In this document: positions 267 through 36,334 of the stretch, piece after piece
How the letters are laid out: every line of letters starts with the position of its first letter
How positions within the stretch are numbered: position 1 is the stretch's first letter
Origin: Accumulibacter sp.
GTDB taxonomy: Bacteria > Pseudomonadota > Gammaproteobacteria > Burkholderiales > Rhodocyclaceae
Direction of reading: 5' to 3'
DNA: 64,000 bases
Assembly (NCBI GenBank): GCA_024235715.1
Contig: JACKLW010000006.1
Span: forward strand, 310,001 to 374,000
Notes under the pieces: generated by a model
What the model saw: the letters and a program-made list of their open reading frames with translations, nothing else
The model's database searches: none
What the model was told of the DNA's origin: nothing
Translations under genes and position numbers: made by a program

Positions 267-1340
267 TTACGCCAGGGTCCCGACGTTGTTCAGATCCTTG
301 AAGGCCTGCGTCAGGCGGGCGCGGAAGGAATCTTCGCCCTTGCGCAGCCAGGCACGCGGATCGTAGTACTTCTTGTTCGGCTTGCTGTCGCCTTCGGGGT
401 TGCCGATCTGGCCTTGCAGATAGCCTTCATTCTTCTTGTAGAAGCCCATCACGCCTTCCCAGAACGCCCACTGCAGGTCGGTGTCGAGGTTCATCTTGAT
501 GACGCCGTAGGAGATCGCTTCGCGGATTTCCTCGAGGGTCGATCCCGAGCCGCCGTGGAAGACGAAGTTGACCGGCTGCGCCTTGGTAGCGAATTTCTTC
601 TGCACGTACTCCTGCGAGTTCTTGAGGATGATCGGCTGCAGCTTGACGTTGCCCGGCTTGTATACGCCATGCACGTTGCCGAAGGCGGCGGCGACGGTGA
701 AGCGATCGCTGACCTTGGACAGTTCTTCATAGGCCAGAGCCACGTCTTCAGGCTGGGTGTAGAGCTTCGAGCTGTCGACGTTGGTGTTGTCCACGCCGTC
801 CTCCTCGCCGCCCGTGACGCCGAGCTCGATTTCGAGGGTCATGCCCATCTTGCTCATCCGTTCGAGATAGCGCTTGCAGATCTCGATGTTCTCGGCGATC
901 GGCTCTTCGGAGAGGTCAAGCATGTGCGAGCTGTAGAGCGGCTTGCCGTGCACCTTGAAATACTGCTCGCCGGCGTCGAGCAGGCCGTCAATCCAGGGCA
1001 GCAGCTTTTTCGCGGCGTGGTCGGTATGGGTGACGACAGTGGCGCCGTACAGCTCGGCCATGTGATGGATGTGCATGGCAGCGGAGACGGCACCGGCAAC
1101 ACAGGCGCGCTGGCCGGCATTGTCGAGTCCCTTGCCGGCATAGAATTGCGCACCACCATTCGAGAGCTGGATGATGGCCGGGGAGTTGAGCTCGGCGGCA
1201 GTCTCGATGACGCCGTTTACGGTGCTCGTGTTGATGACGTTCACGGCCGGCAGGGCGAATTGCTTTTCCTTGGCCAGATCGAAGATTGCTTGCAGTTGGT
1301 CGCCGCTGGCGACACCTGGTTTAATGCCTTTTGCATTCAT
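267..1340 (-). CDS. fba: Class II fructose-bisphosphate aldolase
   Basis: Cytosolic enzyme that reversibly cleaves fructose-1,6-bisphosphate into dihydroxyacetone phosphate and glyceraldehyde-3-phosphate. The product is 357 residues, close to the usual ~359 of the FbaA type. Class II metal and substrate motifs are visible: THTDHAAKK, the GNVHGVYKPGNV segment with a metal-binding His, and FHGGSGS near the C-terminus. The open frame continues upstream, but the ATG at 1338-1340 (MNAKGIKPG) gives the family start; the 38 extra residues before it are unlike the family. An intrinsic terminator follows. The arsenic genes acr3 and arsR lie upstream on the same strand, with 150 bases between acr3 and fba, so fba probably has its own promoter. 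Confidence 0.95.
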   Translation of the reverse strand: MNAKGIKPGVASGDQLQAIFDLAKEKQFALPAVNVINTSTVNGVIETAAELNSPAIIQLSNGGAQFYAGKGLDNAGQRACVAGAVSAAMHIHHMAELYGATVVTHTDHAAKKLLPWIDGLLDAGEQYFKVHGKPLYSSHMLDLSEEPIAENIEICKRYLERMSKMGMTLEIELGVTGGEEDGVDNTNVDSSKLYTQPEDVALAYEELSKVSDRFTVAAAFGNVHGVYKPGNVKLQPIILKNSQEYVQKKFATKAQPVNFVFHGGSGSTLEEIREAISYGVIKMNLDTDLQWAFWEGVMGFYKKNEGYLQGQIGNPEGDSKPNKKYYDPRAWLRKGEDSFRARLTQAFKDLNNVGTLA

Positions 1341-29907: not shown

Positions 29908-30672
29908 CTACGAGACCACCCTGCGCCGCATCGCCCAGAGCGCAGGCAACACGAGCAGCCAGGTGGCAGGTTCCGGAACGTTGGAAGTGGGCAACGGCGT
30001 CGAGCCAAAGAACAGGTCGTCTGCGTAACCTACCTGATAAACGCCAGCGGGACTGAAATTCGGTACCACGTCGAACAGGCCGTCCATTTCGATTCTCGTG
30101 ATCGGATTTGCTGCGTCTGAAATAAAGCCGACGAATTCCTCGATCGCCGTGTTCTGATGCTCACCGAGCAAGGTCGCACCACTGTAGAAGCGGGTGAGCA
30201 TCAAGGTGTTGAAGAAGGTCCTGGTCAATCCGGCGCGCATTTGTCCGGTGTCGAAGGTAATCTCGTATACCGATTGACCGTCGGTAACACCGCCCTGTCT
30301 GACGCCACCAATGAGGCGATTCGCAGAACCAGGAGCAGACCCGCACGACGTGCTGAACGGATTGCCAAGGGAACAGATCACGTTGACTTCCAGATTGACG
30401 GGCGTGCCGCGCGAGCCCCCGGGGGGAGGGGCATGGAACCCGGTGCCGTCAACCGTCGTACGAAACGTGAGGCCAGGTATCTGGGTGGTCAGCTTGGTCT
30501 GGGCTGCGAAGCCGTTGAAGGTCTCGTGCGTGTCACCCAGCGTGGCGGCATAGTCTTCGAACTGCGTACGCGCGGCGGTACCGTATACGATCCCGGCATT
30601 CGACGGCAAACTGGTTGCAAGAAGTGCCGGCACAGCGGCCAGGCTGATCAACTGTCTTATCGAGGTTTTCAT
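29908..30672 (-). CDS. PEP-CTERM sorting-domain protein of unknown function
   Basis: Exported protein of 254 residues. The signal peptide is MKTSIRQLISLAAVPALLAT plus a few residues, followed by a Thr/Gly-rich beta-type domain (for example YEITFDTGQMRAGLTRTFFN and GVYQVGYADDLFFG). The C-terminus is VPEPATWLLVLPALWAMRRR: the Pro-Glu-Pro motif, one membrane segment and an Arg cluster that exosortase recognises. The mature protein is expected to be cut from the membrane and released or attached to exopolysaccharide. The ATG at 30670-30672 has GGAG eight bases before it. A sigma-54-type promoter lies at 30822-30837. No exosortase gene is in the window. Confidence 0.9.
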   Translation of the reverse strand: MKTSIRQLISLAAVPALLATSLPSNAGIVYGTAARTQFEDYAATLGDTHETFNGFAAQTKLTTQIPGLTFRTTVDGTGFHAPPPGGSRGTPVNLEVNVICSLGNPFSTSCGSAPGSANRLIGGVRQGGVTDGQSVYEITFDTGQMRAGLTRTFFNTLMLTRFYSGATLLGEHQNTAIEEFVGFISDAANPITRIEMDGLFDVVPNFSPAGVYQVGYADDLFFGSTPLPTSNVPEPATWLLVLPALWAMRRRVVS

Positions 30673-30821
30673 AACTATCTCCAAGATTAAGGAATGAATC
30701 GATCGGAACTACTTGTGGATTACTCAGGTTGGCGATTGCGTACCGCCGGCGATTGCCCAAAACCGGGACGACGGCCAGAGCGAAGATGACACCGGCAAGT
30801 TGCCCTCGCTTTCGTTGACAA

Positions 30822-31252: not shown

Positions 31253-31873
31253 ATGAAACTGTACACCTACGATCGCGCTCCAAACCCCCGTCGCCTGGCG
31301 ATGTTCATGAAATACAAGGGTATCGAGCTCGACAGCCAGCAGGTAGACCTGATGAAAGGCGAGCAACTCGGCGAGCAGTATCGGGCGATCAATCCGCACC
31401 AAACGGTGCCGGCACTGAAACTGGATGACGGCAGCGTGCTCAGTGAGGTGATCGGCATCTGTACGTATCTCGAGGCGCTCTACCCCGACAGGCCCCTGCT
31501 CGGGACCAGCGCCATTGAAAAGGCGCGCGTCATCAGCTGGGATCATCGCCTCTTCGCCGCCCTGGTCGTGCCCATTGCCGACATGCTGAGGAACAGCGCC
31601 GAGGCCTTCCGCAACCGCGCCCTGCCTGGCCCGTACAATGTTCCCCAACTCCCCGAGATGGTCGAGCGTGGGCGCCTGCAGGTGCACTGCATACTGCCCG
31701 ACCTGGACGCCCACCTGGCGGGAAGCGCGTGGCTGGCCGGTGAAAACTTCACTTTCGCCGATATCGACCTCGTGGCCGCCGTCGATTTCATGGCCTGGGT
31801 GAAGGAGTCCGTACCGGCGGAGTGCGGAAATCTAAAGGCCTGGTATGAGCGCGCGCAGGCCGAGTTGGCCTGA
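31253..31873 (+). CDS. Glutathione S-transferase family protein
   Basis: Cytosolic protein of 206 residues with an N-terminal thioredoxin-like domain (MKLYTYDRAPNPRRLAMFMK) containing NPHQTVPALKLDDGSVLSEV, the cis-Pro and glutathione-binding segment, and a helical C-terminal domain with GENFTFADIDLVAAVDF. It would conjugate glutathione to electrophiles; the substrate cannot be told from sequence. The start is the ATG at 31253, preceded by CCGGAGATGTCCC. It stands alone between two gaps of several hundred bases. Confidence 0.9.
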   Translation: MKLYTYDRAPNPRRLAMFMKYKGIELDSQQVDLMKGEQLGEQYRAINPHQTVPALKLDDGSVLSEVIGICTYLEALYPDRPLLGTSAIEKARVISWDHRLFAALVVPIADMLRNSAEAFRNRALPGPYNVPQLPEMVERGRLQVHCILPDLDAHLAGSAWLAGENFTFADIDLVAAVDFMAWVKESVPAECGNLKAWYERAQAELA

Positions 31874-32208
31874 TTTTGCGGTGCAGCCGGCTCAGACCGC
31901 CGGCGCTTCCTGACCGTTTTGCCGCCAGGCCTGCCTGGCGAGTCGGGATTGCGCGACACGCCGGATCTGGCCGTTTGCCCCACATCTTTTCCCATCCGCG
32001 GCTGTCGCGATGGGTCGCCTTCGCTGTGACTGCAAGGCGGCGGGTTCACGCTCCCGGGCGATCTCGTTCAGCGTTGGGCGGCCACAAGGGGGCGAAGGGT
32101 GCGCCTTTCCCTGCCGCCCTGGATTTCGTGCGGCCACTCCCCGCTGACAGGACGTGCCATCGAGGCTCGGCCCTCGCGCCGCACAGCGAATGACTGGAGG
32201 ACTCTCCC
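31874..32208. other. Intergenic region with a small hairpin
   Basis: About 335 bases without a supported gene. CGCCAGGC-CT-GCCTGGCG at 31923-31940 could form an eight-bp hairpin after the glutathione-transferase gene but has no T run. The right end contains the GGAGG ribosome binding site (32196-32200) of the next gene. No clear promoter was found. Confidence 0.45.
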
Positions 32209-35200
32209 ATGACCGTACCAGAAGCGTTTGAAGGATCGTTGCACGGCCTGTCGCTAAGATCAGTACGTCTGGCCAACGTGGTCAACAATGAATTCGTCGT
32301 CGTAGACACGCCCGAGGTGCGGCTGGCAACAGCGGCACCGCCCGCCAGAGCGAGAACCGTGACCGCGCAGCGGGCAGACCTGGCCCCGCTTGTCGCGACA
32401 CCCGGCGGCAAGGCGCTTGTCGCCAGCACCGACGCCCTGGGCAGGAAGGACGTCGCCATTCGTGTCGCTCGGCTGGACGACGGAACTGCCCGCGCGAGCC
32501 TCGATATCCAGGAAAACGATTTCACCTTCGATCTTCTCTTCGCAGATTTCGCCAGCAGCAGCAACGCGTATTTCGTCTTCGATCAGGTAAGCGTCATCCT
32601 GAAGACGGACAGGGAGAAGTCGCGGCTGATTTTCAGCGGTGTCCTGAAAATGCGTGGTGCCCTGCTGCAGCCTTTGCAGAAATTCATCAAGCAGGACCAG
32701 GGTTTGCTTGTCGGCGGCACGCTCGACGTCAGCCATCAGGACTTGTCGCAAAAACTCAGGCCGTCGAGCATGACCCTGACCAGCGCCGCCAGCTTCCACG
32801 TCGCCGTCAGCGACGATGTGCTGTTCAGTGACCTGCAGCTGATTGTGGAAATCAAGGCCGATGATCCGGCGAAGGGTGCAGCGACGACCTGGAACGTGGT
32901 GCCGAGTCTTGCCGGCAAGGTGACGCTCGGCAATCTCGGCTACGGCGCCGTCGACCTCGCCTGTCGAATCGAATACGTCGGGAAGACGCTCAAGGTCAGC
33001 GCGCAGACTGCGCGGGCGGACGGGCTGTTCGCCATCTCCACTTTATCGCTCGCCGATCTGCAGGCGAATTTCGCGCTGGGGCGCGAGAAGTCCATCGAGT
33101 TGCAGGCGGCGATTGATGTCGCCGGCAAGAGCTACGCGCTTGGCGGCGTCCTGAATCAGAAATTCAGTGCATTGCACGCGTCGATCAATGCCTTCTCGCT
33201 GACGGAACTGCGAGCCCTCTTTCACGAAATCACTTCCCTGGATCTGGCTTTGCCCGATTTCGACGTGGCCTTCAGTGACGTTTGCCTGGGCCTGGCGACG
33301 GCGAAGTGCAAAGTGGGAGAACAGGCGTTGGCCGAGGGCGTGACCCTCGCTGGGCGCCTGCAGGTGCACGGGCATCATTGCCAGGCTCTGGCGCAGATAT
33401 CCCCCAGCGGCATTGCCTTCACGGGCGCCCTGGGGGACCTGCAGATCGGGCCAGTGGCCTTGAAGAAGGCACAATTGCAGATGCAGTTTTTCACTGCTGC
33501 CAGTGGCCGGGCGAGTCATTTCGCGATCATCGGGCAGGCTGTCATTGAAGGACTGAAGCTCGACTGCAAGGTGGCCTACGAAAAGAGCGCTGATGGCTGG
33601 GCGGCGATTGTCTATGCGGCAATACAGGCCGAGAGTTTCGCTTTTTCGGCGATCATTCCGGCAGCGAAGAATACCTTTGTCGATTCGCTGACATTCTCGA
33701 AAGCGGCGTTCATTTACGCGTCGCAGGACGGCCGGAGCAAGGATCCCGATCTCGCCTTTGAGGTACGCAAGGGTCTGCAGTTGATGTGCGTCCTGCAGGA
33801 GATCCCGGCGCTTTCGGATCTCACCGGAAACAGGCAGGTCGGGCTTGAACTGTCGGCCTACTACGGCAAATCCCTTGACATTGGAATCGCGCTGCCCGAC
33901 ACGCGGCTGCACCTGGGCAACTCGGTGACCTGCAATCCGTTTCAGATCAGGATCGTCGTCCTGCCAAAGCCGTCGTTCAACCTGATCTTCAGCCTCGATG
34001 TCACCGTTCCCAGGCAGGATGAGGCCTTGCATTTCGATGCCCAGTTGGCGGTTGGCATCGAGGGTGCTTCGGGTTCCGGGACGATGAAGGCCTACTGGGC
34101 GAACCCGTTCGGATTGCAGGGCGTCAAGGTCGGACCTGCGCTGGCACTGGAACTGGGCATACTCTATCCGGTCTTTCTGACGACCGGCACGCCTTCGGAC
34201 TTCGGCTTCGTCGGCGGTCTCGCGCTGGGCGAGGTTACGGCCAATATGGCCGTGAAAATCTCGGAGGATCCGAGCGAGGAGATCCTCTATGGCGAGTTGC
34301 AGGAGCTGTCGCCAGCCAACCTGGTGAGCTTTGCCGAACAGGTGTCGAAGCTGAAACTGCCGGCGGACGCGGTACCCGATTTCTTCGCCTTGCATGCGCT
34401 CAAGATCTACTGTGCGCCGGCCGGTGGAAGCATCGGCACGGTCAGCTTCGAGCGCGGCTTCAGCTTCGCCTGTGACCTCGTCCTGTTCGGAAAGAAGGCC
34501 TCCGCCTATACCCGCCTGTCGGACGACGGGGTGCTAGCGAAAGGCCATCTGGACAGGCTCGAAATCGGTCCGCTCAAGATATGCGGCGAGGCTGGACAGA
34601 ATGCGACGCTGGACCTGGAGCTGACGACGACGAGGCAGTCGGTTCTGATCGATGGTGAAATCGAGTTTCTCGGTTCCAGATCGGGTGTGATGGTCGACAT
34701 CTCCAATCGCGGCATAGAGTTTCATTTCAACCAGAGTTTTCTCGGCCTGCTCGGCTACCGCATCGACGGCGTCAGCAAAGGCTCGATCGGCGAACCGGCA
34801 ACGCTGGATTTCCTGCTCTCCGGCGAGTTCGACAATCAGCTGACCGACTATCTGAAGAACGACCTGACACGGAAACTGCATACGGCGATAAGCGTGGTTG
34901 AAACCGACGTCAACGCGGCGAAGAAGCAGCTTGACCAGGCCGAGCGGATCTACAGGGCGGAGTTCGAAAAAGCCAGCAAAACGCTGACTCGGGCGCGGGC
35001 CGATGCCAGTCGCTTTCTCGAGCAGTGCCGACAGGCGGTGGCTGTCGAAGAAAAGAGATACGCAGAAGCGTTGAACAAGGCGCAACGCGACGTCGCCAGG
35101 GCAAAGCGGGACTTCGACAAGGCGCTGGCGAACGCCGAGAAAGCACTGAGCAAGGCGCAGGCTGACTACGACACGGCAATGCGCAGCGCGCAGGCAGCGG

Positions 35201-36156
35201 TCAGCAAGGCTCAGCGCGATTACGACGCTGCGATGACCGCTGCCAGAAACGAGGTGATCCGCGCCCAGAAGGCCTACGGCACCGCCATCGGAGGAGCGGC
35301 AAGCAAAGTCAGGGCGGCAAGAGAAGCGGTCGGTTCGCTGGTGCGGGAGCGCGATGCCGCGGTGAAGGAACTCAAGCACCTGAATTGGGCGAAAGCCTAC
35401 AAGGCACCTTACCTGGCGGCGAAGATTGCCGGCCTTGAAACCGCCATGCGTACCGCGCAGGGCGCGCTGTATGCTGCCGAAGGCGTGCTCACGGCGGTGC
35501 AGAAAGGTGGCGAATTCGGCGCCTTCGAAGCGGCCAAGGCAGCGCTCGAGGCGGTGCGTTTTGGTGGTGAGTACGGTGCCCTGGAAGCCGCCAGGCAAAC
35601 CCTCGAGGCGACTCGCATGGGTGGCAGCCATGGCCTGCTCGAAGCGGCCAGGAGAGGCCTGGCCGCGGTACAGTCGGGAACGGATTACACCGCCTGGCAG
35701 GCGGCGAATCAGGCGCTGAAGGCCGTTCAGACTGGCGGTCGCCTGGCCCTCGATGCCGCCGAACAAAGCCTCGCCGGGGTCGGCCAGTCATCGCTGTACC
35801 TGGCCCTGGAAGCCGCCAGACAGTCGCTCGACCTGGTCAGGCAGGGTTCCAGCGCGCTGGCATTCGAGAGCGCCAAGGCAAGCCTGGAAGGCATCAAGCA
35901 GGGTTCCCAGGCGATGTTGCGGGTGTCGGCGTACGCGGCCGCGCACGCCGGGGGGCTGATCGACGTCAGGCACGTCAGCCTTGCGGCCCAACTGAAAGCC
36001 ATCGAACGCGGCGAGTTGTTCAAGGCGGACGTCGATGCGGCGATATTTTCCAGGCCGGTGCACTGGAAAGTGAACTTTGACGTCAGAGAGCCGCTCAGGT
36101 TTGTCGAGACGCTGCTGAGCAATGCGCTGAGCGAAGCGAAGCGACTCGCTGCGTGA
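32209..36156 (+). CDS. Large protein of unknown function: beta-rich body, coiled coil, eight 19-residue repeats
   Basis: 1315 residues, ATG behind GGAGG eight bases upstream. I do not recognise a named family. There is no signal peptide or membrane segment, so it is probably cytosolic or exported by a signal-independent route. Residues 1 to ~880 are a long series of alternating beta-strand-like stretches (for example FALGREKSIELQAAIDVAG, VLIDGEIEFLGSRSGVMVDI) with a conserved-looking TTGTPSDFGFVGGLALG near 658. Residues ~885-1060 are a charged Ala-rich coiled coil (KAQRDVARAKRDFDKALANA). Residues 1086-1236 hold eight tandem 19-residue units. A compact end follows (VDAAIFSRPVHWKVNFDVRE). It stands alone between a glutathione transferase and a membrane protein. 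A scaffold or lipid-handling role can be imagined from the shape, but nothing shows it. Confidence 0.85.
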   Translation: MTVPEAFEGSLHGLSLRSVRLANVVNNEFVVVDTPEVRLATAAPPARARTVTAQRADLAPLVATPGGKALVASTDALGRKDVAIRVARLDDGTARASLDIQENDFTFDLLFADFASSSNAYFVFDQVSVILKTDREKSRLIFSGVLKMRGALLQPLQKFIKQDQGLLVGGTLDVSHQDLSQKLRPSSMTLTSAASFHVAVSDDVLFSDLQLIVEIKADDPAKGAATTWNVVPSLAGKVTLGNLGYGAVDLACRIEYVGKTLKVSAQTARADGLFAISTLSLADLQANFALGREKSIELQAAIDVAGKSYALGGVLNQKFSALHASINAFSLTELRALFHEITSLDLALPDFDVAFSDVCLGLATAKCKVGEQALAEGVTLAGRLQVHGHHCQALAQISPSGIAFTGALGDLQIGPVALKKAQLQMQFFTAASGRASHFAIIGQAVIEGLKLDCKVAYEKSADGWAAIVYAAIQAESFAFSAIIPAAKNTFVDSLTFSKAAFIYASQDGRSKDPDLAFEVRKGLQLMCVLQEIPALSDLTGNRQVGLELSAYYGKSLDIGIALPDTRLHLGNSVTCNPFQIRIVVLPKPSFNLIFSLDVTVPRQDEALHFDAQLAVGIEGASGSGTMKAYWANPFGLQGVKVGPALALELGILYPVFLTTGTPSDFGFVGGLALGEVTANMAVKISEDPSEEILYGELQELSPANLVSFAEQVSKLKLPADAVPDFFALHALKIYCAPAGGSIGTVSFERGFSFACDLVLFGKKASAYTRLSDDGVLAKGHLDRLEIGPLKICGEAGQNATLDLELTTTRQSVLIDGEIEFLGSRSGVMVDISNRGIEFHFNQSFLGLLGYRIDGVSKGSIGEPATLDFLLSGEFDNQLTDYLKNDLTRKLHTAISVVETDVNAAKKQLDQAERIYRAEFEKASKTLTRARADASRFLEQCRQAVAVEEKRYAEALNKAQRDVARAKRDFDKALANAEKALSKAQADYDTAMRSAQAAVSKAQRDYDAAMTAARNEVIRAQKAYGTAIGGAASKVRAAREAVGSLVRERDAAVKELKHLNWAKAYKAPYLAAKIAGLETAMRTAQGALYAAEGVLTAVQKGGEFGAFEAAKAALEAVRFGGEYGALEAARQTLEATRMGGSHGLLEAARRGLAAVQSGTDYTAWQAANQALKAVQTGGRLALDAAEQSLAGVGQSSLYLALEAARQSLDLVRQGSSALAFESAKASLEGIKQGSQAMLRVSAYAAAHAGGLIDVRHVSLAAQLKAIERGELFKADVDAAIFSRPVHWKVNFDVREPLRFVETLLSNALSEAKRLAA
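35464..35916 (+). repeat. Eight tandem 19-residue repeats in the unknown large protein
   Basis: Units such as ALYAAEGVLTAVQKGGEFG, AFEAAKAALEAVRFGGEYG, ALEAARQTLEATRMGGSHG and AFESAKASLEGIKQGSQAM follow one another without gaps; one of the eight has 18 residues. Consensus: A-L-E-A-A-R-x-x-L-E-A-V-R-x-G-G-x-Y-G. Each unit should be a short amphipathic helix plus a Gly-rich turn, giving a regular helical array. Confidence 0.85.
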
Positions 36157-36334
36157 CGCAGTGAATGGGTCCGCGACGCGTTCGCTGCGCGCTGTCGACC
36201 AAGGCGTTGAGCAAAGGCGTGTGGGGAAGCGCAGAGTGTGCGCCGGCGCGTGATAGTATGCGCCGGGCCTGCCGCTGATCGGAGGGGGCCGCAGCCAGTT
36301 TCGTATCCGGCACTTCGGACAGCATGATGCAGTG

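What the first reader, a model, noticed from the sequence alone, without database searches (positions are those of the whole stretch)
32209..36156. Unrecognised 1315-residue protein: long beta-rich body, coiled coil and eight 19-residue repeats
This is the largest gene in the window that I cannot assign to a family. It has a good ribosome binding site, no signal peptide and a three-part layout: ~880 residues of beta-type repeats with a TTGTPSDFGFVGGLALG core, ~175 residues of charged coiled coil, then eight 19-residue helical repeats and a compact tail. The order is highly organised, so it is unlikely to be random. I have an unverified recollection of similar segments in large uncharacterised fungal proteins, which would make it a cross-kingdom family of unknown role. 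Its extended shape could suit a scaffold or a lipid- or membrane-associated filament, but nothing in the sequence shows this.
Basis: partly seen in the sequence, partly recalled or inferred. Interest (0 to 1): 0.75.

Follow-up and report, generated by a model that had tools for sequence, protein, structure and literature searches.

The report
Undescribed giant protein family, swappable tails
A very large protein in an Accumulibacter-type wastewater bacterium turns out to belong to an apparently uncatalogued protein family scattered across six bacterial phyla, with a conserved beta-rich body and fast-changing tails; its job is still unknown.

Summary
In detail: ORF 32209-36156 encodes 1315 residues with a good RBS, no signal peptide, a beta-type first two-thirds, a charged coil and eight 19-residue repeats. 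No Pfam or NCBIfam model reaches its cut-off, and nothing in PHROGs or PADLOC matches. An A. regalis homologue is 78% identical end to end, dN/dS 0.18 (0.09-0.10 in the core).

The new result is a family. A profile of six relatives that the window protein did not itself retrieve finds the window gene at E 6e-13; the best decoy is 8.7. The body is conserved and the tail varies (repeats of 16, 18/19 or 29 residues, or other domains). No member has a hydrophobic N-terminus. In Accumulibacter the gene is sporadic (2 of 28 genomes) and sits at two different loci.

Fold and function are not established; AlphaFold2 failed (pLDDT 27 and 39). The fungal claim could not be tested. My mechanism, a released platform with a swappable stalk, is inference at about 0.3.

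The parts
32196..32201 (+). ribosome binding site GGAGGA
   Evidence: read directly
32209..36156 (+). whole gene, 1315 aa, single unbroken ORF
   Evidence: 78% identical full-length homologue in A. regalis; dN/dS 0.178
32209..33564 (+). residues 1-452: N-terminal part of the body, no significant match outside A. regalis; faster evolving (residues 1-450 dN/dS 0.245)
33565..33996 (+). residues 453-596: weakly shared with Mycetohabitans and its group
   Evidence: A. regalis vs Mycetohabitans E 3.7e-5 at 453-846; hhalign 458-848 E 1.2e-13
33997..34761 (+). residues 597-851: family-wide conserved core, including the TTGTPSDFGF stretch and the YCAP...IG...F..GF...L.LFG module
   Evidence: hhalign E 4.4e-18; independent six-member profile E 6.2e-13; dN/dS 0.09-0.10 over 450-890
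34846..35388 (+). residues 880-1060: charged helical stretch with an 18-residue tandem repeat, clearest at 964-1035
   Evidence: long helices in the low-confidence model
35464..35919 (+). residues 1086-1237: eight 19-residue repeats
35920..36153 (+). residues 1238-1315: C-terminal tail; no relative found outside A. regalis

Best explanation
Shown: the gene encodes a conserved member of an uncatalogued family of large soluble-looking proteins, made of a beta-rich body followed by a lineage-specific tail that is usually a tandem helical repeat. It is under purifying selection and is sporadically distributed. Inferred: the body is a folded platform, and the tail is a quickly evolving stalk or binding region that sets what the protein contacts. 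The protein has no export signal and is released by cell lysis or by a muramidase-assisted, holin-type route, then acts outside the cell on surfaces or on other organisms. The family homology I put at about 0.97; the confidence below is for the mechanism.
For: Family: hhalign 4.4e-18; a four-member profile without the window hits the window gene at 6.4e-8 as the only match in 250 genomes; a six-member profile hits it at 6.2e-13 against a best decoy of 8.7 among 1187 targets. Purifying selection, dN/dS 0.178. Body kept, tail changed: tail periods 18/19, 16 and 29; a B_lectin-like domain next to the G614 body; a domain shared with a neighbouring gene in Calothrix. No hydrophobic N-terminal segment in any of 10 members. 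Muramidase GH108 beside the gene in Hymenobacter and about 2.3 kb away in Mycetohabitans, two phyla; a peptidoglycan-binding protein beside the Paenibacillus gene. The 29-residue repeats also occur in Deinococcus proteins that I read as lipoproteins. Mobility: 2 of 28 Accumulibacter genomes, two different loci.
Against: Window and A. regalis have no muramidase, nuclease or toxin-like neighbour, and GH108 was not found in either genome or in G614 (0 of 3, though the control genomes were silent too). GH108 is near only 2 of 10 members and an EEP-type gene near 2 of 10. The G614 lectin match is below Pfam's cut-off and lies in a different, overlapping frame. No export was shown, and no fold was obtained.
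Confidence: 0.3

Rival explanations
1. Lipid or membrane protein: the beta body is a long hydrophobic groove of the AsmA/TamB or VPS13 kind and the alanine-rich amphipathic tail lies on a membrane.
For: Beta-rich body with weakly repeated modules; alanine-rich tails; a TULIP-like (JHBP) sub-threshold match, E 0.0023, in the ORF just upstream of the Streptantibioticus member.
Against: No AsmA, TamB or VPS13 model matches in Pfam or NCBIfam; no N-terminal membrane anchor; no PDB match for the four-member profile at E <= 5.
Confidence: 0.22
2. Intracellular scaffold or filament: the coil and repeats oligomerise the body into a cytoplasmic structure.
For: Long charged coil and tandem repeats; coil-only resemblance of the Paenibacillus tail to the polarised-growth protein Scy (E 2.5e-7, 28.7 bits against a cut-off of 1040).
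Against: Absent from 26 of 28 Accumulibacter genomes searched, so not a core cell structure; coil matches are expected of any coiled coil.
Confidence: 0.22
3. Phage- or mobile-element-linked structural or passenger gene.
For: Seven of ten members found lie on plasmids (but they came from a plasmid search); IS elements near the Mycetohabitans, Calothrix and Paenibacillus genes; weak tape-measure matches in the Mycetohabitans tail (E 3.5e-4).
Against: No match in 50,697 phage records nor in four viral-contig scans; purifying selection; no transposase next to the window gene.
Confidence: 0.13

Closest known systems
Uncatalogued family: Haur_5003 (Herpetosiphon), NIES4101_25970 (Calothrix), MTX78_RS23185 (Hymenobacter), IHE29_RS16810 (Mycetohabitans), LIT34_RS30125 (Priestia), V6668_RS31345 (Paenibacillus), Streptantibioticus pSCAT ORF
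   Same: Conserved body core (window 597-851), body-then-tail order, large size (988-1527 aa), no hydrophobic N-terminus
   Different: Window and A. regalis have their own N-terminal 450 residues and an 18/19-residue tail instead of 16- or 29-residue repeats; different neighbours
DUF6603 proteins (PF20248)
   Same: Very large beta-rich-looking proteins; two sister DUF6603 proteins have an N-terminal extension that matches the family's N-terminal half (E 1e-5 to 3e-5; 3.7e-5 and 2.4e-4 with the profile lacking window sequences)
   Different: The DUF6603 domain itself is not found in any member scanned and does not align (best E 0.069); 6 of 8 DUF6603 proteins give no match, and the window pair gives none (E 0.49)
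AsmA/TamB and VPS13 (repeating beta-groove) lipid-transfer proteins
   Same: Long beta-rich body in general outline (recalled resemblance)
   Different: No sequence match, no anchor, fold untested

Membership tests
Uncatalogued body family (this work) | Sequence homology of the core to relatives not retrieved by the window query | tested here: met
   six-member profile, E 6.2e-13 for the window gene, next best 8.7; two three-member sub-profiles 3.9e-6 (decoy 0.084) and 1.7e-7 (decoy 3)
Uncatalogued body family (this work) | Tail after the body, often a tandem helical repeat | tested here: met
   window 0 of 300 shuffles; of the 8 tails tested, Herpetosiphon, Hymenobacter, Mycetohabitans, window and A. 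regalis 0 of 300, Priestia 1, Paenibacillus 10, Calothrix 39 of 300 (not repeated); G614 and Streptantibioticus not tested
DUF6603 (PF20248) | Match over the 27-bit cut-off | tested here: not met
   no match in the window protein nor in its genome
DUF6603 (PF20248) | Shared N-terminal extension module | tested here: inconclusive
   met for the Herpetosiphon group against 2 of 8 DUF6603 proteins; not met for the window pair
AsmA/TamB or repeating beta-groove proteins | Family profile match | tested here: not met
AsmA/TamB or repeating beta-groove proteins | Groove-shaped beta fold | tested here: inconclusive
   AlphaFold2 pLDDT 39 and 27
MARTX / polymorphic toxin | Curated model over cut-off or a recognisable toxin domain | tested here: not met
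   MARTX 13.7 bits against 700, on the coil only; no domain in the tail
Muramidase-assisted (type 10-like) export cargo | GH108-type muramidase in genome or locus | tested here: inconclusive
   near 2 of 10 members; 0 of 3 genomes G000, G001, G614, with silent controls

The most novel reading that the evidence does not exclude
A cross-phylum, and possibly cross-kingdom, family of horizontally moving giant proteins in which one conserved beta body is combined with interchangeable tails, released without a signal peptide to act on other organisms: a delivery or recognition platform not yet described.
Probability: 0.18. Interest if true: 0.75.

Novelty: new variant of a known kind. Interest (0 to 1): 0.45.

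Why it matters
It gives a first definition (members, core, conserved motifs, architecture) of a protein family of 1000-1500 residues found in six phyla that none of the libraries searched here names. That makes it directly testable: a body alignment for structure prediction, and a set of culturable hosts (Herpetosiphon, Hymenobacter, Priestia) in which the gene can be removed. If the released-platform reading is right, it would be a new class of mobile, tail-swapping protein; if not, it still removes a block of 'hypothetical protein'.

Tried and rejected
Tail-insertion idea (residues 1246-1315 as the last strand and helix of the body, the helices being an insertion): a profile of seven members' body ends gave no match to the window tail, so not supported. 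Direct DUF6603 membership: rejected. Weak hits examined and dropped: G429 (coil only, E 3.5e-4; I read it as PspA-like), G532 (RND-pump-like), G382 (TPR-like). G756 (E 0.0855, two stops) was not examined. In one search ten of the eleven plasmid hits at E <= 10 were not pursued; only Mycetohabitans was. Viral-contig scans: four, no relatives. Fold searches were not run because both models were of low confidence. GC3 of 'big_helical' was computed out of frame and is not used. Literature: a core peptide, Haur_5003/pHAU01, DUF6603 and two repeat peptides gave no paper on the family; one search listed one Herpetosiphon genome paper with no mention of Haur_5003. Searches gave nothing on this gene in the listings seen.
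Full report
What is there. The ORF at 32209-36156 (+) is a single unbroken 1315-residue reading frame with GGAGGA 7 nt before the ATG. The 19-mer periodicity (lag identity 0.43) is reached by 0 of 500 shuffles. The coil is also a tandem repeat, of 18 residues (0.25, 0 of 500), which the finding did not note. The body shows no repeat in the single sequence (192 of 500 shuffles reach its best lag).

It is a real, selected gene. The window genome is of the same genus as G001, whose contig matches the published Ca. Accumulibacter regalis contig JEMY01000001.1 in length and locus. The A. regalis copy has the same length and is 78% identical. dN/dS is 0.178 overall, 0.099 for residues 450-725 and 0.088 for 725-890, against 0.21-0.25 in the other four regions computed.

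It is sporadic and has moved. Of 28 genomes of the genus searched (own included), 2 have it; four of the 26 without it are under 90% complete. In the window it lies between a GST gene and a BPSS1780-family gene; in A. regalis between metH and glnS. In four other stretches around the BPSS1780 gene it is absent; in one of them (G011) GST and BPSS1780 flank 6.8 kb that includes transposase-like ORFs instead. In 18-kb stretches around glnS of G000, G010, G011 and G016 neither this gene nor metH is found. Gene GC is 0.616 against 0.649 for the window, and GC3 0.761 against 0.788-0.833 for the six neighbouring genes measured, so it looks largely adapted to its host.

No library names it. Pfam and NCBIfam give only sub-threshold matches on the coil; PHROGs and PADLOC give none at E <= 0.01 for the window protein; PDB gives one chance-level match. 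For the relatives, matches are likewise sub-threshold or on tails, e.g. Fibrinogen_BP on the Mycetohabitans repeat (35.0 bits against 50) and a weak PHROGs match in the Paenibacillus body (E 0.005).

The family. Profile A1 found one distant relative among 369 genomes of the class (G614, E 4.7e-6). BLASTP of the window against it gives 2e-8 as a single comparison, but only 0.001 when scaled to a large database. That protein found Hymenobacter (3e-119), Herpetosiphon (3e-102) and Calothrix (4e-48) plasmid proteins. The window protein itself reached Mycetohabitans rhizoxinica only at E 0.3, which in turn found Priestia (4e-18) and Paenibacillus (2e-6); Herpetosiphon found Streptantibioticus (2e-7; two records of one strain, counted once). 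All-against-all comparison ties these together. hhalign of the Accumulibacter pair against the eight others gives E 4.4e-18 over residues 598-851, against the Mycetohabitans group 1.2e-13 over 458-848, and against the Herpetosiphon group 1.1e-7 (pairwise values, not calibrated on a database).

Checks against circularity. A profile of four members without any Accumulibacter sequence (A4, which does include G614) finds the window gene at 6.4e-8 as the only match in 250 genomes of the order. A profile of six members that the window query did not retrieve finds A. regalis at 3.6e-14 and the window gene at 6.2e-13; the best of the remaining 1187 targets, real ORFs and 200 shuffles among them, is 8.7. 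Sub-profiles of three give 3.9e-6 (best decoy 0.084) and 1.7e-7 (best decoy 3). I take homology of the core as established and that of residues 1-452 as unknown.

Distribution caveat. Members lie in Pseudomonadota, Bacteroidota, Chloroflexota, Cyanobacteriota, Bacillota and Actinomycetota (G614 by kinship). Seven of the ten are plasmid-borne, but those seven came from a plasmid collection. The one scan of genome contigs used two short peptide patterns and found only A. regalis. Among Pseudomonadota the gene is rare: no further member in 398 genomes of the phylum (the same draw by handle and count) or 250 of the order.

Body versus tail. Of eight tails tested, period 29 is clear in Herpetosiphon and Hymenobacter (0 of 300 shuffles) and likely in Priestia (1 of 300), 16 in Mycetohabitans (0 of 300), 19 and 18 in the Accumulibacter pair (0 of 300); Paenibacillus (10 of 300) is doubtful and Calothrix (39 of 300) is not repetitive. 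The Calothrix tail instead shares a domain with its neighbour NIES4101_26030. Beside the G614 body, in an overlapping different frame, lies an ORF with a helical start and a B_lectin match below cut-off (23.9 against 32.4 bits). None of the ten members has a hydrophobic N-terminal stretch. Deinococcus plasmids carry the 29-residue repeats alone, in proteins that I read as lipoproteins from the sequence.

Neighbours. An EEP-type gene lies directly upstream in Herpetosiphon (Pfam 34.7 bits, cut-off 24.5) and Calothrix (homologous, E 1.7e-41, but itself without a Pfam match). GH108 muramidases lie downstream in Hymenobacter and about 2.3 kb upstream in Mycetohabitans (65 and 74 bits, cut-off 21.2; homologous, 7e-17). 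Other pairs in that comparison were transposases, one restriction endonuclease pair and general ABC or cyclase matches. The window and A. regalis show no such neighbour, and GH108 was not found in G000, G001 or G614 (0 of 3, control genomes silent). So the link to a muramidase route is suggestive only. That the muramidase TtsA exports typhoid toxin I saw in a search listing and abstract start (PMC6996933); that TtsA is of the GH108 type is recalled.

Relation to DUF6603. From memory I suspected PF20248. The domain is absent from the window genome, while 8 of 398 genomes have it, and it does not align (best E 0.069). The N-terminal extension of two sister DUF6603 proteins does match the family (9.7e-6 and 3e-5; 3.7e-5 and 2.4e-4 with the Herpetosiphon-group profile; best of 200 shuffles 8.5 and of 8 reversed 21 over the three profiles), but six of the eight do not, the Mycetohabitans-group profile does not, and the window pair does not. 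I treat this as a lead that the N-terminal module is shared by a wider set of giant proteins.

Fold. I ran no fold search on them. The idea that the tail closes the body was tested by profile and not supported.

Judgement. Family membership is secure; the mechanism is not. I favour a released platform with a variable stalk (0.3) over a lipid-groove protein (0.22), an intracellular scaffold (0.22) and a passenger gene (0.13).

Noticed in passing
window 31873-36332; L032 7626-14437: The GST to BPSS1780 interval is a variable spot: in G011 the same two genes flank 6.8 kb with transposase-like and other ORFs.
   Followed up: partly
L023 7975-10116; L024 6095-7978: Deinococcus plasmid proteins made largely of about 29-residue helical repeats, with a UBA_DHX29 Pfam match over cut-off (52.3 against 27 bits, scanned for the L023 protein).
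   Followed up: partly
L018 1469-8416: Calothrix plasmid cluster of hypothetical genes upstream of the family member; one (775 aa) shares a domain with the member's tail and with a further neighbour.
   Followed up: partly
L022 7833-8996: ORF just upstream of the Streptantibioticus member with a sub-threshold JHBP (TULIP) match, E 0.0023; the region carries no gene in the PLSDB table.
   Followed up: no
L045, L046 residues about 46-255: N-terminal extension of two DUF6603 proteins matches the N-terminal half of this family.
   Followed up: partly
window 29908-30684 (-): Small protein with a PEP-CTERM-like end, below cut-offs.
   Followed up: no
L009 1266-2456: Gene directly upstream of the G614 member without Pfam or NCBIfam match; I read a nitrilase-like Cys motif from memory.
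   Followed up: no
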